Part shown: positions 8,698-35,521 of the stretch, one piece after another
How the letters are laid out: the number at the start of each line of letters is the position of its first letter
How positions within the stretch are numbered: position 1 is the stretch's first letter
NCBI GenBank assembly: GCA_947501555.1
Contig: CANMWG010000001.1
Coordinates: forward strand, 1,612,001 to 1,676,000
DNA from: an uncultured Paracoccaceae bacterium
GTDB lineage: Bacteria; Pseudomonadota; Alphaproteobacteria; Rhodobacterales; Rhodobacteraceae
Direction: 5' to 3'
DNA length: 64,000 nucleotides
The notes under the pieces: generated by a model
What the model saw: only the letters and a program-made list of their open reading frames with translations
What the model was told of the DNA's origin: nothing
Databases searched by the model: none
Made by a program: the position numbers and the translations under genes

Positions 8698-10137
8698 CTA
8701 AAGCCCTTTCGCCCGGTAGCTATCAGCGACTTTTCGGATAGAAACCAGATAGGCCGCAGTCCGCAAATCTAACACGTCATCACGGCTGCGCCAGACCTCA
8801 CGCATCGCCTGATAGGCCGCGCGCATTGTGTCATCGAGACCCGAACGCACCAGTTCCAACTCTCCTGCCCCGCGCAAGTAGCGTTCTTTGAAGTCCGGGC
8901 TCAGCTCCCACCCTAGATCTTTGTTCGCTGAGAGTCGTTCCAGTTCGTCCACAACCAATTGATGCCGGCTTTCTTCGGCTCGGCGTTGCATCCGGCCAAA
9001 GCGGATGTGGCTGAGGTTCTTGACCCACTCAAAGTAAGACACGGTGACCCCACCCGCATTGGCATACATATCCGGGATGATGATGCAGCCCTTGTCCCGC
9101 AGAATATCATCAGCACCAGCAGTGACAGGACCATTCGCAGCTTCAATAATGATGGGGGCCTTGATCCGATCGGCGTTGCCCAAATTGATCACACCCTCCA
9201 AGGCGGCAGGGATCAGGATGTCGCATTCGGCCTCAAGCAAACCCGCACCATCTGTGTGATGATTGGCATCTGGATAGCCGGTCACGCCGCCATGTTTAAC
9301 GATCCAGTCACGCACGGCTTCGACATCCAACCCGGCCTCATTGTGCAAAGCACCATCGCGTTCGATAATGCCGGTGATGATCGCCCCATCTTCCTCGGAT
9401 AGGAATTTGGCGGCGTGATAACCAACATTTCCCAGACCTTGGACAATCACGCGTTTTCCGTCGAGTTTCCCCGATAGATTTGCCGCAGCCACATCCTCGG
9501 GATATCGAAAAAACTCTTGCAGCGCGTATTGCACGCCGCGACCCGTGGCCTCAACCCGGCCCGCGATGCCACCGGCGTTAGTCGGTTTGCCCGTCACGCA
9601 AGCCGCCCCGTTGATATCCGTTGTATTCATGCGTTTGTATTGGTCCGCAATCCAGGCCATTTCCCGTTCGCCCGTACCCATATCGGGAGCAGGCACGTTC
9701 TGGGCCGGGTTGATCAGGTCGCGCTTTACAAGTTCATAGGCAAAACGGCGGGTGATCAGCTCCATCTCGTGCTCTTCCCATTCGCGGGGATCAACACAAA
9801 GCCCCCCCTTAGAGCCGCCAAAGGGGGCTTCGACCAACGCACATTTATAGGTCATCAGCGCAGCAAGTGCTTCAACCTCATCTTGGTGGACCGCCGTGGA
9901 AAAACGTATGCCACCCTTTACGGGTTCCATATGTTCGGAATGCACGGATCTGTACCCAGTAAAGGTGTGAATTGCACCGCGCAAACGCACCCCAAAGCGC
10001 ACCGTATAAGTTGCATTGCAAACGCGGATCTTCTCTTCCAGCCCTGGGCTAAGGTCCATCAAGGCAACAGCACGGTTAAACATCAAGTCCACGGACTCAC
10101 GAAAACTCGGCTCTTTGATTGTATCTTGCGCAGTCAT
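8698..10137 (-). CDS. Glutamate dehydrogenase (Glu/Leu/Phe/Val dehydrogenase family)
   Basis: This enzyme reversibly deaminates glutamate to 2-oxoglutarate with NAD(P)+. The 479-residue protein has the substrate lysine motif APFGGSKGGL, the catalytic AP(D)MGTGEREMAW region, and the cofactor Rossmann motif VIVQGLGNVG. I selected the ATG at 10135-10137 because an AGGAAGGAAA ribosome site lies just upstream; the longer in-frame start at 10200 lacks one. Length and sequence fit the NAD-type GDHs of about 470-480 residues rather than the 450-residue NADP enzyme, but cofactor choice is not certain. The start faces a nested inverted repeat in the divergent region. Confidence 0.92.
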   Translation of the reverse strand: MTAQDTIKEPSFRESVDLMFNRAVALMDLSPGLEEKIRVCNATYTVRFGVRLRGAIHTFTGYRSVHSEHMEPVKGGIRFSTAVHQDEVEALAALMTYKCALVEAPFGGSKGGLCVDPREWEEHEMELITRRFAYELVKRDLINPAQNVPAPDMGTGEREMAWIADQYKRMNTTDINGAACVTGKPTNAGGIAGRVEATGRGVQYALQEFFRYPEDVAAANLSGKLDGKRVIVQGLGNVGYHAAKFLSEEDGAIITGIIERDGALHNEAGLDVEAVRDWIVKHGGVTGYPDANHHTDGAGLLEAECDILIPAALEGVINLGNADRIKAPIIIEAANGPVTAGADDILRDKGCIIIPDMYANAGGVTVSYFEWVKNLSHIRFGRMQRRAEESRHQLVVDELERLSANKDLGWELSPDFKERYLRGAGELELVRSGLDDTMRAAYQAMREVWRSRDDVLDLRTAAYLVSIRKVADSYRAKGL

Positions 10138-10213
10138 GTATTTTCCTTCCTGAGCGGGGCGAAACCCGCTGATGTGGGCGACGTTTGGCCCTAAAATCAC
10201 ACTAGGACCGATT

Positions 10214-10277
10214 CGTGAAATTTGGTTGAAAGGGACTGCGGCTCACAAAACGGCCAAAATGTGAGCCGAATTTCACG
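10214..10277. promoter_or_regulatory. Nested inverted repeats between GDH and the Tad-like genes
   Basis: An inner inverted repeat (CGGCTCACA at 10239 and TGTGAGCCG at 10260) lies inside an outer one (CGTGAAATT at 10214 and AATTTCACG at 10269). All arms are perfect 9-mers, and on the right side the inner and outer arms are contiguous. The element sits in the 355-bp divergent region between the GDH start and the first Tad-like gene. It may be a regulator-binding site or an RNA hairpin; which promoter it serves is unknown. Confidence 0.55.
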
Positions 10278-10492
10278 GCGAAGTTTCGCCAATGCCCATA
10301 TTTTGTTTCTATTACGCAAACAGTTATGGCCCTACAGTCACAATGTATGCTGTTCACAAGATTTTGTGGCGCCACTCCGCCCACTTGCCCAACTTTCGCC
10401 ACAGCAAAATGTTTTTTTATGATAAATCCTTCTAAAGAAACTGTAGTTAGAAGATCGGGGCGCAAGCGCTAGTGCCGTCAAGAGGATAGATA

Positions 10493-12082
10493 ATGTTTGA
10501 ACGTTTTAAGGCTGCCAAAATCGACATAGATAAACCAAGCCCGAGGGAGCGATACTTACGTGCGTTCGCGCGCGATGAGAATGGTGAAATCGTTATCCTG
10601 ACGCTGATCCTGCTAGTTGTAATGCTTGTCATGGGCGGCATGGCCGTTGACTTCATGCGGTTTGAATCCAAACGTGTTGCTTTGCAGGATGTGTCCGATC
10701 GGGCTGTTTTGGCTGCTGCCGAACTTGATCAAACAGTCGACGCACAAGATTTGATCGTCAGCTACTTTGAATCAGAGGGTCTTGAGAGCTCGATCGTTGG
10801 GACGCCGGTCGTCAGTATTGAGCCGGGATCGCGCGAAATTTCTGTGCAGTCAGCTGTTGATATGAATACCATTTTTCTCCGCTTAGTCGGCATGGACGAG
10901 CTTACAGCGCCCGCCGCGTCTGAAGCCGTTGAAGGCGCCAGCAGTGTAGAAATTTCACTGATCTTGGACATCTCTGGCTCCATGGCAAGTTCCGTAACCG
11001 ACGCCGATACAGGCATTACAACTACGCGAATTGCGGCCGTGAAAGCCGCCGCCCGCGAATTTGTTGACGATGTAATCAACAACGATTCAAACCCTGACGA
11101 AGTGTCGGTATCTTTAATAACCTATTCGCAACAGGTGAACATTGGCAACGGCATCTATGAGCAATTGAACACAACACCAGATTCACTTTGGTTGGATACT
11201 TCCGGAAACGTCGATGTCGTGCGCGAAGTCGACACGACCGACGCAAACTTTTCCTCTTACGATAAAGAGTATATCACCACGAACGAAGCCCGCTGCGTCG
11301 AATTCAATGCGTCAGAATTTAACACTACTGTTTTTGATGTGAACCGGACTTATCAGCAGGTAGAAACGCTCGAATATTACGCTGGTGAGAGTGGAGTCAA
11401 TTTCAAGCGGCCCCTGTGCCCTCATGATGAAGAAGAAGGAATAATCGCGCACAGCCAGGATGTTGACCAGTTGCAAGACGCTATTGATCTACTAGACGAT
11501 ACAACTTTCACATCAATCCAATTGGGCATGAAATGGGGCGTGTCATTGCTTGATCCATCCATGCGTCCCCTGCTTGCCAACCTCGATGATATGGATCCTG
11601 CCTTTGCGGGTGTACGCCCCATGGAGTACCGCGATGACGCACCTGACAGTGAGAACAATCTCAAGTATGTTATCTTGATGACCGATGGCGTTAACGTTCG
11701 CGGGAACCGTTTGGACGAAAACTATGGTGACGATTTTTACTACCGTCGTGCGATGAACACCTTTCCTTGGAATTACTATATCAGTGACAGAAACGTCTTT
11801 GATCACCCCAATGTTAGTTGGAGAAACAAACCTAGCCTGAACAACATTCTCGACAATGATGACTATAACGCGAGCACAATGGACTCCCAACTGGAAAGCA
11901 TCTGCGATGCTGCGAAAGATAAAGGCATCATTGTGTTTTCAATTGCGATGGGTTTGACAAGTGACGTGCTCAGCTACTGCGCGAGCGGCGCAAATCGCTA
12001 TCATGAAACCGATGGCAGTGACGTTGGCGACGTATTTGACGAAATCGCCAGCCAGATTACTGATTTGCGATTGAGCCTGTGA
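10493..12082 (+). CDS. TadG-like pilus-assembly protein with VWA domain
   Basis: This 529-residue protein has an N-terminal Tad-type hydrophobic segment (residues 35-58, NGEIVILTLILLVVML...GGMAVDFMR). A von Willebrand factor A domain follows with an intact MIDAS (DISGSM near residue 162). It ends in the usual ADRYHETDGS-like TadG C-terminus (YCASGANRYHETDGSDV). Such proteins are anchored in the inner membrane, face the periplasm, and accompany Flp pili or related secretion. An AGAGGATAG ribosome site precedes the ATG. The gene overlaps the next by TGATG. No TadA, TadB, TadC, RcpA or pilin gene is in the window, so this is an orphan set. The internal acidic region (residues 230-330) is low in similarity to anything I recognise. 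Confidence 0.85.
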   Translation: MFERFKAAKIDIDKPSPRERYLRAFARDENGEIVILTLILLVVMLVMGGMAVDFMRFESKRVALQDVSDRAVLAAAELDQTVDAQDLIVSYFESEGLESSIVGTPVVSIEPGSREISVQSAVDMNTIFLRLVGMDELTAPAASEAVEGASSVEISLILDISGSMASSVTDADTGITTTRIAAVKAAAREFVDDVINNDSNPDEVSVSLITYSQQVNIGNGIYEQLNTTPDSLWLDTSGNVDVVREVDTTDANFSSYDKEYITTNEARCVEFNASEFNTTVFDVNRTYQQVETLEYYAGESGVNFKRPLCPHDEEEGIIAHSQDVDQLQDAIDLLDDTTFTSIQLGMKWGVSLLDPSMRPLLANLDDMDPAFAGVRPMEYRDDAPDSENNLKYVILMTDGVNVRGNRLDENYGDDFYYRRAMNTFPWNYYISDRNVFDHPNVSWRNKPSLNNILDNDDYNASTMDSQLESICDAAKDKGIIVFSIAMGLTSDVLSYCASGANRYHETDGSDVGDVFDEIASQITDLRLSL

Positions 12083-32302: not shown

Positions 32303-32329
32303 TCTTAAACTCTCAAATCAAACCATGGC

Positions 32330-32455
32330 CGGAACAAGGTGGTTGCAGGATGTTTTTCCGCCACCAGATTGCTCTGGGCTGGGTTTGAACCAGCACGGGC
32401 CCGAAGGCCCACCCACGAAGGGCTGCGTCTACCTGTAATCCTGCAGGCATTTCTG
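32330..32455 (-). ncRNA. Y RNA-like unit 8 with tRNA-like module
   Basis: The most kptA-proximal unit. The conserved loop strands ATGC (32450-32447) and CTTG (32338-32335) are flanked by a weak outer helix CAGAA/TTCCG (4 of 5 pairs) and a perfect inner helix TGCAGGAT/ATCCTGCA. Inside lie a GGGCC-TTCG-GGCCC hairpin, a T arm GCTGG-TTCAAAC-CCAGC, and a closed acceptor-like stem CCAGA-GCAA-TCTGG with a GNRA loop. The D arm is reduced to TGGCGGAAA. Order is T arm before acceptor, as in the other units. Confidence 0.6.
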
Positions 32456-32463
32456 ACTATGGG

Positions 32464-32542
32464 TCCGGGGGACAAAAGATGCGTGAGATGCCTTTCGGCG
32501 ACCGATTTTGCGCGATGTATTCCCACGAGGCATTCCCCCGGA
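32464..32542 (-). ncRNA. Y RNA-like unit 7, short form without T arm
   Basis: The outer helix TCCGGGGGA/TCCCCCGGA is perfect over 9 bp, the internal loop is ATGC opposite TTTG, and the inner helix is CGTGGGA/TCTCACG. The enclosed part (about 30 bases) has no tRNA T arm. It keeps only the putative Ro-binding stem. Confidence 0.6.
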
Positions 32543-32578
32543 TGTTTCCTTTCTATTTTGTGAGGTGCACAGGGCATT

Positions 32579-32651
32579 GCCTGGACCTCGGGGTGGGTGC
32601 GAAGCGCTCTCCCCATGGGGGAGGTCCAGGCGCTGCCCGGCGGGGCCGGGC
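32579..32651 (-). ncRNA. Structured RNA element in the array, not Y-like
   Basis: On the minus strand a GCCCGG-CCCCG-CCGGGC hairpin (32651-32635) is followed by a perfect 11-bp stem GCCTGGACCTC/GAGGTCCAGGC enclosing 31 bases that include CCCCATGGGG and GCGCTTCGC. It lacks the ATGC/CTTG loop and T arm, so it is a different structure, lying between tRNA-Gln and Y-like unit 7. Role unknown. Confidence 0.5.
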
Positions 32652-32686
32652 GGGATGTGACATCTTGCGCTGCGCTTCAGTTCATT

Positions 32687-32762
32687 TGGCTGGAAGGGTA
32701 GGATTCGAACCTACAGCCGACGAGATCAAAACCCGTTGCTCTACCAATTGAGCTACCTTCCA
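32687..32762 (-). tRNA. tRNA-Gln (UUG)
   Basis: A complete cloverleaf: acceptor TGGAAGG/CCTTCCA, D arm GCTC...GAGC, anticodon stem ACGGG/CTCGT with loop TTTTGAT (anticodon TTG), and T arm GTAGG-TTCGAAT-CCTAC. Discriminator G and CCA are encoded. U1-A72 and the UUG anticodon fit tRNA-Gln. It lies 4 bases downstream of tRNA-Asn inside the rsr-kptA interval. Confidence 0.92.
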
Positions 32763-32766
32763 TTAT

Positions 32767-32841
32767 TGGCTCGGCTGGCTGGATTCGAACCAGCGACATC
32801 CTGATTAACAGTCAGGCGCTCTGCCACTGAGCTACAGCCGA
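32767..32841 (-). tRNA. tRNA-Asn (GUU)
   Basis: A complete cloverleaf: acceptor TCGGCTG/CAGCCGA, D arm GCTCAGTGGCAGAGC, anticodon stem CCTGA/TCAGG with loop CTGTTAA (anticodon GTT), and T arm GCTGG-TTCGAAT-CCAGC. Discriminator G and CCA are encoded. It begins 5 bases after Y-like unit 6 and is followed at once by tRNA-Gln. Confidence 0.93.
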
Positions 32842-32846
32842 ATGGG

Positions 32847-32906
32847 GGAGGACAAGGGATTGATGAGACATCTCTTTGGCTGATGTAGTCCCACCGGCAT
32901 TCCTCC
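32847..32906 (-). ncRNA. Y RNA-like unit 6, minimal stem-loop
   Basis: A 60-base unit with outer helix GGAGGA/TCCTCC, internal loop ATGC/CTTG, inner helix GGTGGGAC/GTCTCATC (with G-U pairs) and a short apical part. It has the full conserved stem but no tRNA-like module. It lies directly upstream of tRNA-Asn. Confidence 0.65.
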
Positions 32907-33017
32907 GGTTTGATGCATTTCGATTTCGTATCGCGCCGCCAATCGCTGTCTTTCGCCTGCGGCTCAAACGCAATTGGTGACATTTGATTTCGCAAGATGA
33001 AATCGAAACGCGTTGAT

Positions 33018-33095
33018 TGGTTAGGGATGGAGGATTTGAACCTCCGGCCTCCGCAGTCCAAGTGCGGCACTCTGACCAGCCTGAGCTAATCCCTG
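33018..33095 (-). tRNA. Atypical tRNA-Pro (UGG) with C1-A72 mismatch
   Basis: The cloverleaf is complete: D arm GCTC...GAGT, anticodon stem CCGCA/TGCGG with loop CTTGGAC (anticodon TGG), T arm GGAGG-TTCAAAT-CCTCC, encoded A73 and CCA. The acceptor CAGGGAT/ATCCCTA leaves C1 opposite A72, a feature of initiator tRNAs; ordinary bacterial tRNA-Pro has C1-G72, which the synthetase reads. Decoding of Pro is therefore likely by anticodon but charging is doubtful. Confidence 0.8.
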
Positions 33096-33105
33096 TGATG
33101 TAAAT

Positions 33106-33237
33106 CCCCGGCGACAAGGGGGGCTGAAACGTTACGCGCTCTATCCATCTGAGCTACCCCGGCATGGTACCAGGGGTGGGGCTCGAACCCACGACCTCGA
33201 CATCCAAAATGTAGTTCCAACCGGCATTCGCCAGGGG
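33106..33237 (-). ncRNA. Y RNA-like unit 5 with tRNA-like module
   Basis: Outer helix CCCCTGGCGA/TCGCCGGGG (one bulged T), internal loop ATGC/CTTG, inner helix GGTTGGAAC/GTTTCAGCC. The module has T arm GTGGG-TTCGAGC-CCCAC, then an acceptor-like stem CCCTGG/CCGGGG closed by TACCATG, then D arm TAGCTCAGATGGATAGAGC. The loop contains ACCA, as if a tRNA 3' end had been joined to a tRNA 5' end: the circularly permuted order. Confidence 0.78.
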
Positions 33238-33248
33238 GTGGATTCGGG

Positions 33249-33371
33249 TCCGGCAACAAGGGGTGGGCGAAACAAAGGTGAATTGCTCTACCAACTGAGC
33301 TACCCCGAAACGGGGGCGGGATTCGAACCCGCGACCTATCCATTAATGTAGTTCCACCAGCATTTGCCGGA
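33249..33371 (-). ncRNA. Y RNA-like unit 4 with tRNA-like module
   Basis: Outer helix TCCGGCAA/TTGCCGGA (perfect 8 bp), internal loop ATGC/CTTG, inner helix GGTGGAAC/GTTTCGCC. The module holds T arm GCGGG-TTCGAAT-CCCGC, a closed acceptor-like stem CCCCG-TTT-CGGGG, and D arm TAGCTCAGTTGGTAGAGC. Confidence 0.78.
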
Positions 33372-33382
33372 TGTTTTTTTGC

Positions 33383-33530
33383 CCTGACGACAAGGATGTA
33401 AGAAACAGTCTGGGGCCCCGCCCCCATCCCCTTTGGAGATGGTTTTCCGTCTGGACGTTTCGCATGAGGGGAGTTGAACCCTCGGGTGATCCCACTTTGG
33501 AGCGATGTAGTTCCTTAAGCATTCGTCAGG
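33383..33530 (-). ncRNA. Y RNA-like unit 3, T arm but no standard D arm
   Basis: Outer helix CCTGACGA/TCGTCAGG (perfect 8 bp), internal loop ATGC/CTTG, inner helix TAAGGAAC/GTTTCTTA. The module has a T arm-like GAGGG-TTCAACTC-CCCTC with an 8-base loop, then a CATCTCC-AAA-GGGGATG hairpin in place of the acceptor and D arm. The inner-helix change from GGTG to TAAG is matched on the other strand. Confidence 0.72.
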
Positions 33531-33540
33531 TTGTTTTGGT

Positions 33541-33680
33541 CCTGGCAACAAGGGCTGGATGAAACATGGGGGAGGTGCTCTACCATCTGAGCTACATCGC
33601 TCCGGTTGTCCCGGTTGCGATGGCGGGGCTCGAACCCGCGACATCATCCGTGCATGTAGTTCCATCGGCATTTGCCAAGG
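33541..33680 (-). ncRNA. Y RNA-like unit 2 with tRNA-like module
   Basis: Outer helix CCTTGGCAA/TTGCCAGG (one bulged T), internal loop ATGC/CTTG, inner helix GATGGAAC/GTTTCATC. The module has T arm GCGGG-TTCGAGC-CCCGC, an acceptor-like stem CATCGC/GCGATG extended by CCGG/CCGG around GACAA, and D arm TAGCTCAGATGGTAGAGC. Confidence 0.78.
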
Positions 33681-33695
33681 TGTTTGTCTGTCGGT

Positions 33696-33825
33696 CCCGG
33701 CGACAAGGGTGGGTGAAACATTTTTCGCGCGTCTACCATTTCCGCCACATGGCCGAAGCCACGACAGGATTCGAACCTGCAATGTACGAGCATTTGAAGC
33801 TGTAGTTCCACCAGCATTCGCCGGG
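33696..33825 (-). ncRNA. Y RNA-like unit 1 with tRNA-like module (class II type)
   Basis: Outer helix CCCGGCGA/TCGCCGGG (perfect 8 bp), internal loop ATGC/CTTG, inner helix GGTGGAAC/GTTTCACC. The module has a variable-arm-like hairpin AATG-CTCGTA-CATT, T arm GCAGG-TTCGAAT-CCTGT, closed acceptor-like stem CGTGGC-TTCG-GCCATG, and a Leu-type D arm TGGCGGAAATGGTAGACGCG. It is the unit nearest rsr. The CGAA and CUUG strands recall the Ro60-binding stem of animal Y RNAs. Confidence 0.8.
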
Positions 33826-33934
33826 GTGTGTTCCTTTCATTTCAATCGGCGTCCTACGATCATTTGGACGACAAGACGTTTCGCCGGGGCGTGACGTAAC
33901 CCACGCATTTCCGAGAGTTTCTATTCCTTTGGTT

Positions 33935-33958
33935 GGGCCAGGCGTTTCCGCCTGACCC
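33935..33958 (-). other. GAAA-tetraloop hairpin just after rsr
   Basis: GGGTCAGGCG and CGCCTGGCCC form a 10-bp stem (one G-U) closed by GAAA, starting 6 bases after the rsr stop. There is no T run, so it is more likely an mRNA stabiliser or processing boundary between rsr mRNA and the RNA array than a terminator. Confidence 0.6.
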
Positions 33959-33964
33959 GCTACT

Positions 33965-35521
33965 TTAGACTTCGACAGCCTCGATCTGACCAACCCAGTG
34001 GTCTGGGCCCATCTCGCCGCTCGCAAAAGCTGCGATCTGGTCAAATACCGTGTCCGAGAACCCGCCGATGTTCAGAACATCGGCCCGTTCCTTGGCCTGG
34101 GTCGTCCCATAAGGGGCGATGTCGATGCAGACCAATTTGGCCTTTGGGTTCCGCTGCTTCAGCTTCTCCCAAGCACGCATCATCACCGTCCCGTTGTTGC
34201 CATAGGCGGCATGCGCCCAGGACTGGTTGTCCGAAACGATGATCACCAGATCAGGAGCACGCCCCTTGGCCAGCAACCATTCCAGCGGTGCCGCACAGTT
34301 GGTCCCGCCGCCCCACTTCTCTGCCAAACGCGCGGCGTTTGTCATGATCGTGTCGCGTGGTTCCAGCCGCACATCACGGACCTTCACCTCAAACGGCAGA
34401 ACCGTTGCGGAGGGGTTGCGCCGCAGCACAGCCGCCGAGACAAGCCCGGCCACATCAACGAACCGCGTCGCTGTGGTAGCCCCTTTACGGTAGCCAGTCA
34501 CAGCGCCGGACATGGACCCCGAAACATCTGGGGCAACCACAACCTGACCGCGCAGCTTTGGTACGTTTTGCACCGAAAGCTCCATCGCGTCATGCAGTGC
34601 CGACTGGATCTGCGCAGGCATATCCGAAGACATCGCCTGATAGGCCGTCATCAGCTGGTACGGGAAGACCCGCGCCTTAGCGATCAGCTCTGGGTTCCGC
34701 AAACGATCCGCAATCAGCTTGCGCATCTTCGGCAAAGCCAGAACCCCATGCCGCTGAAACGTGTTCAGGTTCATACGGGTCATCTGCCAGGATGACTTTT
34801 CAGCGATCCCTGTCCATTGTTTCGTGGACAGCTCAAGCTGTGTCAGCATCTGGAACGGAACATCAGGCACACGCCCACGCCCCGTTTTCTTGAACCGCAT
34901 GTAGTCCTGAACTGCCGCAGGCAGCATGTCTACATCGCAAGGCTTCCCGATGATCCAGGCGAACAAGGCCGCGCGGGCTTTGCTGTCTGGTTTCGGGTGA
35001 ACCATCTTGATCACATCCGCCAGCGACGGATCGTTCCCGACATTGGCCTGCAGGATCGCCCGGTCGGACGCACCTATCAGCCAATTCGCAACCATCCGCT
35101 TTGGTGCAGAGCCCAGCGATTTCCGCCCGGTCTGCCCAGACCGCATGATCTGAACGAAGGTCCGCAGCATCTTGCCGTTGTCCACAACGCGGCCGAAGAC
35201 GCGCTGGAACAGGATCGGATCGCGCGCCGACAGAACCGCCAGCAACAGCGCGGGCATGTCTTTCATATGCCCCTTCTGCCGCGTGTAGATTGCCGCCTTC
35301 GCCAGGAAGGACGGATCAACCTTATTCGCCAGTTCAAGTACGCGCTGCAGCTCCTGCATCGGATCTTGATAGAATGTCTGCCCGAACGTGCCGGTCATCG
35401 CCAGCTGCGTCAGGGCATGTGCATCGTCATATGCGTAGGCCGGAGCCCCCGCCAAGTTTGTGGCGCGAGCCGCCGGAAGCAACCGGCCTTTCATCGATGC
35501 AAACACGGATTTGTTTGCCAT
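33965..35521 (-). CDS. rsr: Ro60-like TROVE-VWA RNA-binding protein Rsr
   Basis: This 518-residue bacterial Ro60 orthologue would bind Y RNAs and misfolded or fragmented RNAs. Residues 20-310 form the helical TROVE ring (ALTQLAMTGTFGQTFY, YTRQKGHMKDMPALLLA, FVQIMRSGQTGRKSLG). Residues 335-518 form a VWA domain with MIDAS VVAPDVSGSMSG and later VSDNQSW. The length fits the family (510-540). It is the first gene of the operon with the Y-like RNA array, kptA and rtcB, and diverges from rtcR. An AGAAGGACG ribosome site precedes the ATG. The pairing of Rsr with neighbouring Y RNAs is the known arrangement in other bacteria. Confidence 0.94.
   Translation of the reverse strand: MANKSVFASMKGRLLPAARATNLAGAPAYAYDDAHALTQLAMTGTFGQTFYQDPMQELQRVLELANKVDPSFLAKAAIYTRQKGHMKDMPALLLAVLSARDPILFQRVFGRVVDNGKMLRTFVQIMRSGQTGRKSLGSAPKRMVANWLIGASDRAILQANVGNDPSLADVIKMVHPKPDSKARAALFAWIIGKPCDVDMLPAAVQDYMRFKKTGRGRVPDVPFQMLTQLELSTKQWTGIAEKSSWQMTRMNLNTFQRHGVLALPKMRKLIADRLRNPELIAKARVFPYQLMTAYQAMSSDMPAQIQSALHDAMELSVQNVPKLRGQVVVAPDVSGSMSGAVTGYRKGATTATRFVDVAGLVSAAVLRRNPSATVLPFEVKVRDVRLEPRDTIMTNAARLAEKWGGGTNCAAPLEWLLAKGRAPDLVIIVSDNQSWAHAAYGNNGTVMMRAWEKLKQRNPKAKLVCIDIAPYGTTQAKERADVLNIGGFSDTVFDQIAAFASGEMGPDHWVGQIEAVEV

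What the first reader, a model, noticed from the sequence alone, without database searches (positions are those of the whole stretch)
32329..33825. Tandem array of Y RNA-like units with permuted tRNA-like modules inside an rsr-kptA-rtcB operon
Seen: between rsr and kptA, same strand, eight units share an invariant internal loop (AUGC opposite CUUG, UUUG in one) between two helices. The helices vary yet stay paired: outer CCCGGCGA/TCGCCGGG, CCTGACGA/TCGTCAGG, TCCGGCAA/TTGCCGGA, GGAGGA/TCCTCC, TCCGGGGGA/TCCCCCGGA; inner GGTGGAAC/GTTTCACC, GATGGAAC/GTTTCATC, TAAGGAAC/GTTTCTTA, TGCAGGAT/ATCCTGCA. This is covariation within one locus. Units 1, 2, 4 and 5 enclose T arm, then an acceptor stem closed by a loop, then D arm: a circularly permuted tRNA order. 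Known: Rsr binds Y RNAs, and YrlA-type Y RNAs mimic tRNA. Inference: this is a multi-member Y RNA family acting with Rsr, perhaps to present different RNAs or recruit different partners. An array of this size with several tRNA types is, as far as I know, not described.
Basis: partly seen in the sequence, partly recalled or inferred. Interest (0 to 1): 0.95.

Follow-up and report, generated by a model that had tools for sequence, protein, structure and literature searches.

The report
Y RNA array displaying tRNA anticodons
Between the genes of a bacterial RNA-repair operon lie eight small Y RNA genes and three extra tRNA genes; many such RNAs, here and in related bacteria, carry rearranged tRNA bodies, and some carry loops that match or nearly match the anticodons of real tRNAs, so they are likely decoys that would shield the cell's tRNAs from enzymes that cut them.

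Summary
Eight Y RNA units (32328-33825, minus strand) lie between rsr and kptA-rtcB, opposite rtcR; Rfam YrlA matches four at E<=2e-10. All 26 Rhodobacteraceae rsr loci first examined carry 2-8 such units (134 in all; 0.8 per round in shuffled DNA). T-arm and acceptor helices covary strongly. Four things were missed. (1) Three real tRNA genes (Pro, Asn, Gln) sit in the array and differ in sequence from the genome's other copies. (2) Unit 8 belongs to a second permutation class, broken inside the D loop. (3) Some units carry a mini anticodon stem-loop right after the Y stem: 22 of 191 units have a 7-nt loop identical to a housekeeping anticodon loop (about 1 expected); a later set of loci confirmed it (6 of 29 loops against 0.13). 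Loops match while stems do not, and in 14 orthologous units the wobble base is the most variable column. (4) A third of anticodon-permuted modules keep an internal N73-CCA in register, mostly those with anticodon loops. In the window itself only units 1 and 5 have such loops, each one mismatch off. Best reading: Rsr-bound tRNA decoys for anticodon nucleases plus spare tRNAs; function is inferred. New variant of a known kind.

The parts
33696..33825 (-). Y unit 1: permuted at the anticodon, Leu-like D arm; mini anticodon loop UUCAAAU (CAA) at 33789-33801; acceptor capped by UUCG
   Evidence: RF02553 55.1 bits; folding gives the 7-nt loop on a 6-bp stem with one bulge
33541..33679 (-). Y unit 2: permuted at the anticodon (T arm, acceptor, D arm)
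   Evidence: RF02553 57.7 bits
33383..33530 (-). Y unit 3: class B, conserved unit with T arm and a GC-rich second hairpin, no D arm seen
   Evidence: 18 class members aligned and folded; RF02553 24.2 bits only
33249..33371 (-). Y unit 4: permuted at the anticodon, short capped acceptor
   Evidence: RF02553 71.4 bits, above gathering
33106..33236 (-). Y unit 5: permuted at the anticodon; mini anticodon hairpin ACA-UUUUGGA-UGU at 33200-33212 (not in the minimum-energy fold); native-register A73-CCA (33165-33168) joined by one U to the first acceptor base
   Evidence: RF02553 61.9 bits
33018..33095 (-). tRNA-Pro(TGG), A37 and C1-A72, unlike the housekeeping copy
   Evidence: ARAGORN, RF00005 61.4 bits, comparison with housekeeping copy
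32847..32906 (-). Y unit 6: mini Y RNA, 9-nt loop
   Evidence: R1 34.8 bits
32767..32841 (-). tRNA-Asn(GTT), CCA encoded, differs from housekeeping copy
32687..32762 (-). tRNA-Gln(TTG), CCA encoded, differs from housekeeping copy
32464..32542 (-). Y unit 7: mini Y RNA, 8-nt loop plus GCC-GAAA-GGC hairpin, UUUG in place of CUUG
32328..32457 (-). Y unit 8: permuted inside the D loop (Leu-like): D-stem 3' half, capped anticodon-arm hairpin, variable arm, T arm, GCAA-capped acceptor, D-stem 5' half (its own minimum-energy fold differs)
   Evidence: class covariation over 26 units
33965..35521 (-). rsr (Ro60/TROVE)
   Evidence: PF25045, PF05731
31763..32302 (-). kptA (RNA 2'-phosphotransferase)
   Evidence: PF01885
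30308..31747 (-). rtcB (RNA ligase)
   Evidence: PF01139
35662..37272 (+). rtcR (sigma-54 activator with RtcR sensor domain), divergent
   Evidence: PF06956, PF00158

Best explanation
This is an array of eight YrlA-type Y RNA units and three extra tRNA genes inside an rsr-kptA-rtcB RNA-repair locus, and it likely works as a set of Rsr-bound tRNA decoys that would draw tRNA-cutting nucleases away from real tRNAs. Shown by the sequence: each unit has the Y core (outer helix, AUGC/CUUG loop, inner helix), the predicted Rsr handle. On it sit swappable tRNA parts: bodies permuted at the anticodon or inside the D loop, capped or CCA-bearing acceptor stems, and, in about a tenth of units across relatives exactly (a quarter within one mismatch, some of those by chance), a mini anticodon stem-loop whose 7-nt loop is that of a real tRNA. 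Inferred: RtcR switches the operon on when tRNAs are cut; Rsr holds the Y RNAs; the displayed loops and elbows compete with tRNAs for anticodon nucleases or bind them; RtcB and KptA mend the cut tRNAs; the array tRNAs (Asn, Gln, Pro, in relatives Lys) top up the pool. Anticodons differ between orthologous units of different species, as expected if local nucleases differ.
For: Loops: 16 of 75 candidate hairpin loops in the first 26 loci equal one of 36 housekeeping anticodon loops (0.40 expected, at most 3 in 1000 letter shuffles; reversed loops 0 of 75; 9 of 54 distinct loops). The same rule on 14 further loci: 6 of 29 (0.13 expected, at most 2 in 2000; reversed 0). Against real DNA: 22 of 290 hairpins in units, 14 of 4639 in rtcR/rsr coding DNA of 14 loci (Fisher p 7e-19, relatedness not corrected, which mends). 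Not copied tRNA pieces: in the 22 exact units the flanking stems share 31 of 132 letters with the matching tRNA, 0 of 22 share all six. Exchange: in 14 orthologues of unit 5, chosen by eye, the stem ACA/UGU, U33 and A38 never vary while wobble position 34 is the most variable of 141 columns. Native-register CCA in 23 of 64 permuted units, 19 of 27 with an anticodon loop against 4 of 37 without (p 1e-6). Covariation of tRNA-body helices. Array tRNAs form sets of like sequence distinct from this genome's housekeeping copies. The operon setting fits: the Salmonella operon is activated when tRNAs are cut, and Hughes et al. suggested that YrlA's tRNA-like domain may competitively inhibit the nuclease (PMC7790460 and PMC8394870, passages).
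Against: No nuclease binding or cutting is shown anywhere. In Salmonella no YrlA fragments were seen when tRNAs were cut, so YrlA is at least not a cleaved bait there. In E. coli tRNA fragments bound the RtcR sensor domain but not full-length RtcR and did not activate it in vitro (PMC9650030, passages). The window's own loops are one mismatch off (units 1, 5) or 8-9 nt long (units 6, 7). Of 64 of 290 hairpin loops within one mismatch, about 10 are expected by chance. Of the first 134 units 59 have no 7-nt-loop hairpin under the rule, and 37 of 64 anticodon-permuted units have no anticodon loop within one mismatch. Most anticodon stems have only 3-4 pairs, and the minimum-energy fold of unit 5 does not show its hairpin. 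No sigma-54 promoter consensus was found upstream of rsr here. The enterobacterial array L143 has no hairpin loop within one mismatch of an anticodon loop.
Confidence: 0.4

Rival explanations
1. Classical Y RNA adaptors: each unit tethers Rsr to PNPase or another RNA-processing enzyme through its tRNA-like module (RYPER-like machine), and unit variety tunes which structured or damaged RNAs are degraded; anticodon loops serve to look like tRNA to partner proteins, not to nucleases.
For: YrlA/Rsr/PNPase assembly and tRNA-modifying enzymes acting on YrlA are described (PMC8394870 passages). The units keep the Y core. Many lack an anticodon loop (37 of 64 permuted ones).
Against: A PNPase tether does not explain exact copies of varied anticodon loops, their difference between orthologues, or real tRNA genes in the array.
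Confidence: 0.27
2. Sensor bait: anticodon nucleases cut the displayed loops, and the resulting fragments, like tRNA halves, feed RtcR and amplify operon expression.
For: RtcR's sensor domain binds tRNA fragments (PMC9650030 passages); loops copy anticodon loops.
Against: The units are made by the operon they would switch on; no YrlA fragments were seen in Salmonella; fragments did not activate E. coli RtcR in vitro.
Confidence: 0.1
3. Anticodon loops recruit tRNA anticodon-loop enzymes (modification enzymes, synthetases) so that Rsr particles gather tRNA-maturation or repair factors near damaged tRNAs.
For: YrlA is modified by DusA and TruB (PMC8394870 passages); U33 and purine 37 are kept in most matched loops; N73-CCA kept in 23 of 64.
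Against: The matched loops span 17 anticodons in 48 units, more than one such enzyme is expected to read.
Confidence: 0.13
4. Neutral capture: tRNA fragments and tRNA genes accumulated by recombination in a repeat-rich interval, without function for the loops.
For: Arrays differ in size and order between species; neighbouring tRNA genes give donors.
Against: Loops match but stems do not; stem, U33 and A38 are kept while anticodon bases change; CCA kept in register; compensatory changes in the T arm and acceptor.
Confidence: 0.05

Closest known systems
YrlA (Rfam RF02553; Salmonella YrlA, structure 6CU1)
   Same: Y core helix pair with the AUGC/CUUG loop, permuted T arm, acceptor, D arm module, position beside rsr
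   Different: Rfam consensus and the enterobacterial array (L143: three units before rtcB) show no anticodon-like 7-nt loop; here up to eight units, several classes, internal N73-CCA, and tRNA genes between units
rsr-yrlBA-rtcBA operon of Salmonella (Hughes et al. 2020, PMC7790460, passages)
   Same: rtcR divergent, rsr, Y RNAs, rtcB; response to cut tRNAs known there
   Different: kptA next to the array here (rtcA was not looked for); three tRNA genes; 8 units
Circularly permuted tRNA genes of algae and archaea (recalled, no call)
   Same: 3' half before 5' half, CCA internal in unit 5 and relatives
   Different: Anticodon arm replaced by the Y helix with a mini hairpin; not expected to yield a decoding tRNA
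Phage tRNAs that evade anticodon nucleases (van den Berg et al. 2023, PMC10264068, passages)
   Same: Extra tRNAs set against tRNA cutting; array tRNA-Pro has a changed anticodon loop (A37 in 10 of 10)
   Different: Cellular operon with repair enzymes; array Asn keeps the housekeeping loop in 9 of 11 and Gln in 8 of 12, so loop change is not the rule

Membership tests
YrlA / bacterial Y RNA | Match to the curated Rfam YrlA model | tested here: met
   Met at the curated score by unit 4 only; units 1, 2, 5 at E<=2e-10 but below it; units 3 and 6 weak (24-26 bits); units 7 and 8 not listed at E<=1
YrlA / bacterial Y RNA | Encoded beside rsr | tested here: met
   Units downstream of rsr in the window and 25 of 25 relatives with sequence there (L044 ends inside rsr); R1 hits 17 of 17 rsr genomes given (of 24 known), 9 rsr-less ones give none below 2.7e-4
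YrlA / bacterial Y RNA | tRNA-like module with T, acceptor and D helices | tested here: met
   Units 1, 2, 4, 5 and, with another break point, unit 8; not met by units 6 and 7 (mini) and only partly by unit 3
YrlA / bacterial Y RNA | Bound by Rsr in the cell | not testable with these tools
   Needs pull-down
RtcR-controlled RNA-repair operon | Divergent rtcR with rtcB | tested here: met
   Pfam, relatives
RtcR-controlled RNA-repair operon | Sigma-54 promoter upstream of rsr | tested here: inconclusive
   Strict patterns match 0 of 23 loci in 220 nt upstream; none between rtcR and rsr here at up to 3 mismatches. By eye the Rhizobium and Shinella loci shown have TGGCACG-N4-TTGAA there. A consensus scan cannot exclude a divergent site
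Functional tRNA genes (array Pro, Asn, Gln) | Full cloverleaf, anticodon, encoded CCA | tested here: met
   ARAGORN and RF00005 61-76 bits; tRNA-Pro here has C1-A72 and A37
Anticodon-nuclease decoy | Binding or inhibition of such a nuclease | not testable with these tools
   Only loop identity was tested

The most novel reading that the evidence does not exclude
RNA-repair operons of marine alphaproteobacteria carry an evolving panel of anticodon decoys: Y RNAs with exchangeable anticodon cassettes on permuted, CCA-bearing tRNA bodies, backed by spare tRNAs, forming an RNA-based cellular defence against anticodon nucleases whose anticodon set records which nucleases each lineage has met.
Probability: 0.35. 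Interest if true: 0.93.

Novelty: new variant of a known kind. Interest (0 to 1): 0.82.

Why it matters
What bacterial Y RNAs do with their tRNA-like part, and what Rsr adds to the RtcB repair operon, is open. Copies of specific anticodon loops that change between species name candidate partners that can be tested in a tube: each loop predicts which nuclease or anticodon-reading enzyme should bind it. If the decoy reading holds, bacteria defend tRNAs not only by repair but by displaying false targets. Whatever the function, the sequences look like natural circularly permuted tRNAs with an internal CCA in bacteria.

Tried and rejected
Nuclease-resistant spare tRNAs: considered because array tRNAs differ from housekeeping copies. 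Rejected as a general rule: the housekeeping anticodon loop is kept in 9 of 11 array Asn and 8 of 12 array Gln; only tRNA-Pro has a consistent loop change (A37 in 10 of 10). Copying of tRNA gene pieces: rejected by the stem comparison. Class B unit (window unit 3) as an anticodon display: by eye the Rhodobacteraceae copies close to a 6-nt loop, so it was not counted on; class-B-like units of two Rhizobium plasmids carry an exact CUCCAAA loop. Sigma-54 promoter search: no site. Colicin E5-type loops (U33-G34-U35) are 15 of 48 matched units; suggestive, but relatedness was not corrected for, and E5's target set is recalled. In one search the automatic choice for unit 5 of the window, L036 and L041 took another hairpin, so they count as misses there; one search lists them.

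Mended on checking: the real-DNA background (17 of 5018) took in the L043 array and short intergenic stretches by mistake; one search repeats it on coding DNA alone (14 of 4639), same conclusion.

Rows dropped: L044 (contig ends in rsr), L075-L077 and L128 (same contigs as L041, L035, L039, L038) were left out of the unit counts; alignment A1 holds 45 of 48 permuted units, three much like others left out. The fourth unit of L135 is probably spurious, as is one of four scan hits in L143 (it lies inside rsr). Units were sorted into classes by motif and by eye. Nine of the 17 rsr genomes gave sequences to the model. Housekeeping loops come from the window's genome alone (36 loops), also for other genera. 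Several loci are close relatives with the same loops (L031, L032, L045; L033, L034, L037; L138, L140). The scan selects on Y-stem pairing, so covariation of the Y stems is not used as evidence.
Full report
What is there. The window is G000:C1:1612001-1676000 of a 4.5-Mb genome; its Rsr is 90% identical to those of uncultured Rhodobacteraceae. On the minus strand run rsr, the RNA array, kptA and rtcB; rtcR faces away (Pfam). The array holds eight Y units (32328-33825) and three tRNA genes, Pro(TGG), Asn(GTT) and Gln(TTG). Rfam's YrlA model matches unit 4 at 71.4 bits (gathering score 69), units 5, 2 and 1 at 61.9, 57.7 and 55.1 bits.

More than chance. A scan for outer helix, AUGC, inner helix and CUUG/UUUG finds 8 units here, none on the reverse strand and none in 5 shuffles. 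A relaxed scan finds 134 units in 26 rsr loci (window and 25 relatives), against 0.8 per shuffled round for all 26 together, and 57 in 13 of 14 further loci (8 Rhodobacteraceae, one Methylosinus, three Rhizobium and one Shinella plasmid; none in Myxococcus phage Mx1). Each Rhodobacteraceae array has 2-8 units. Rsr itself is found in 24 of 394 family genomes. A covariance model built from 45 units hits 17 of 17 rsr genomes given to it at best E 1e-19 or lower, 8 of them unseen by the model, while of 9 rsr-less genomes 6 give no match and 3 a weak partial one, best 2.7e-4 (E-values rough).

Structure. The T-arm, acceptor and D-arm helices were not used to find the units. In 45 units permuted at the anticodon they pair in 98.1% of cells with a covariation score of 0.451 (shuffled 0.157; slid by 1-3 columns at most 0.119). 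The changes lie in the T arm and acceptor, while the D arm is nearly constant, and the count of pairs with a change on both sides does not beat shuffles (8 against 7.0). A second class is permuted inside the D loop: it starts with GGUAGAGC or GGUAGACGC, runs through a capped anticodon-arm hairpin, in Leu-like ones a variable arm, then T arm and capped acceptor, and ends with UAGCUCA or UGGCGGA. In 26 such units the split D stem, T arm and acceptor score 0.659 (shuffled 0.150), and one D-stem pair is A-U in 13 and C-G in 13. Unit 8 of the window belongs here, though its own minimum-energy fold differs. Other classes are mini Y RNAs (units 6, 7), class B (unit 3; 18 aligned) and a few with a T arm only. 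That a bacterial Y RNA is a circularly permuted tRNA likeness is known from structure 6CU1 (PMC11472068, passages).

Anticodon stem-loops. Just after the inner helix many units have a hairpin of 3-5 pairs with a 7-nt loop. Taking one hairpin per unit by a fixed rule, 75 of 134 units have one; 16 loops equal one of 36 housekeeping anticodon loops of this genome (0.40 expected from letter shuffles) and 32 are within one mismatch (3.4 expected); reversed loops give 0 and 0. The same rule on the later loci gave 6 of 29 exact (0.13 expected) and 13 of 29 within one (1.4 expected). Exhaustive enumeration gives 22 exact of 290 hairpins in 191 units, against 14 of 4639 in rtcR/rsr coding DNA of 14 loci, so about 0.9 expected; within one mismatch it is 64 of 290 against about 10 expected. 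Exact loops are those of Arg(ACG), Arg(UCU), Asn, Asp, His, Gln, Gly(UCC), Ser(UGA), Ser(GCU) and Trp. The flanking stems share only 31 of 132 letters with the matching tRNA, so the loop alone is matched. In 14 orthologues of unit 5, chosen by eye, the anticodon reads UUG, ACG, GUG, CAU, CUU or GUU; position 34 is the most variable of 141 columns, 35 ranks 11th and 36 34th, while the stem, U33 and A38 never change. In the window, units 1 (UUCAAAU) and 5 (UUUUGGA) have such loops, each one mismatch from Leu(CAA) and Gln(UUG); units 6 and 7 have 9- and 8-nt loops by eye.

Acceptor end. In 23 of 64 anticodon-permuted units with an intact T arm, CCA sits exactly where a tRNA has it (7 acceptor bases plus position 73 after the T arm); between T arm and D arm no other register exceeds 3 (14 more lie at offset -1, across the T-stem end). 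In 12 of the 14 unit-5 orthologues one U then leads to the first acceptor base (read from the alignment). CCA goes with the anticodon loop: 19 of 27 with, 4 of 37 without (p 1e-6). Other units cap the acceptor with tight loops (UUCG in unit 1, GCAA in unit 8).

Array tRNAs. In the first 26 loci ARAGORN finds Pro in 10, Asn in 11, Gln in 12 and Lys in 1; 18 of 26 loci have at least one. Six of the 8 later Rhodobacteraceae loci have Asn, Lys or Gln, and none of the 5 plasmid loci has any. They resemble each other and differ from this genome's housekeeping copies (other genomes' housekeeping copies were not fetched). They look able to decode, so spare tRNA supply is plausible; tRNA-Pro here has C1-A72 and A37.

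How it likely works (inferred). The Salmonella operon is switched on when tRNAs are cut, and YrlA's tRNA-like domain was proposed there as a possible competitive inhibitor of the anticodon nuclease (PMC7790460, PMC8394870, passages); in E. coli tRNA fragments alone did not activate RtcR in vitro (PMC9650030, passages). The array fits the inhibitor proposal in a way that can be read from sequence: Y cores for Rsr, tRNA bodies, and anticodon loops that differ between species. RtcB and KptA would mend cut tRNAs while decoys occupy the nuclease and extra tRNAs refill the pool. Not shown: transcription, Rsr binding, nuclease binding, promoter (none found). The main rival is the known adaptor role with PNPase (PMC8394870, passages).

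Novelty. In the held library, seven searches (terms around YrlA, Y RNA, Rsr, RtcB, Ro60, tRNA-like, decoy, anticodon nuclease, tRNA mimicry; most listings capped) show no title or abstract start that describes anticodon loops on Y RNAs; only passages of six papers were read, and the main Y RNA papers are not held. The enterobacterial array (L143) has three units before rtcB, one looking D-loop-permuted, so that class may be older than this family. I therefore file the array as a new variant of a known kind.

Noticed in passing
window 32543-32686 (- strand): Between tRNA-Gln and unit 7 lies a long hairpin (GGGCAGCGCC.GGACCUC ... GAGGUCC.GGCACUGCCC in relatives), strongly conserved in the five loci compared, without a Y core; unidentified structured RNA.
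   Followed up: partly
window 33826-33967 (- strand): After the rsr stop a GGGUCAGGCG/CGCCUGACCC-type hairpin and an 80-nt element follow, conserved in five loci compared; in other loci the same outer helix carries a mini Y unit.
   Followed up: partly
L042:6604-7077 (and, by eye only, the same place in L040): A small ORF between rsr and the array resembles calcineurin-like phosphoesterases (PF00149, 21.0 bits, just under the 21.5-bit cut-off); perhaps an RNA-end enzyme.
   Followed up: partly
L141 (Shinella plasmid) 8873-10697: A second RtcB-family ligase with peptide chain release factor H follows the rsr-array-rtcB locus.
   Followed up: no
most units, just after the inner helix: UACA is nearly invariant; a MazF toxin of Deinococcus is described as UACA-specific in a reference title seen. 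Possible link not tested.
   Followed up: no
L142 (Myxococcus phage Mx1): A phage carries an Rsr homologue (48% identity) with tRNA genes nearby but no Y unit by this scan.
   Followed up: no
L023 (G000:C1:2276312-2276384): The genome has a further odd tRNA-Gln(TTG) away from the array, unlike the housekeeping one.
   Followed up: no
L033:6996-7132 and L037:6942-7078: Between Y units sits a long hairpin (GCGUUGAAUGC ... GCAUUCAACGC in L033) holding a class-B-like T-arm module without the usual Y core (sequence shown).
   Followed up: no
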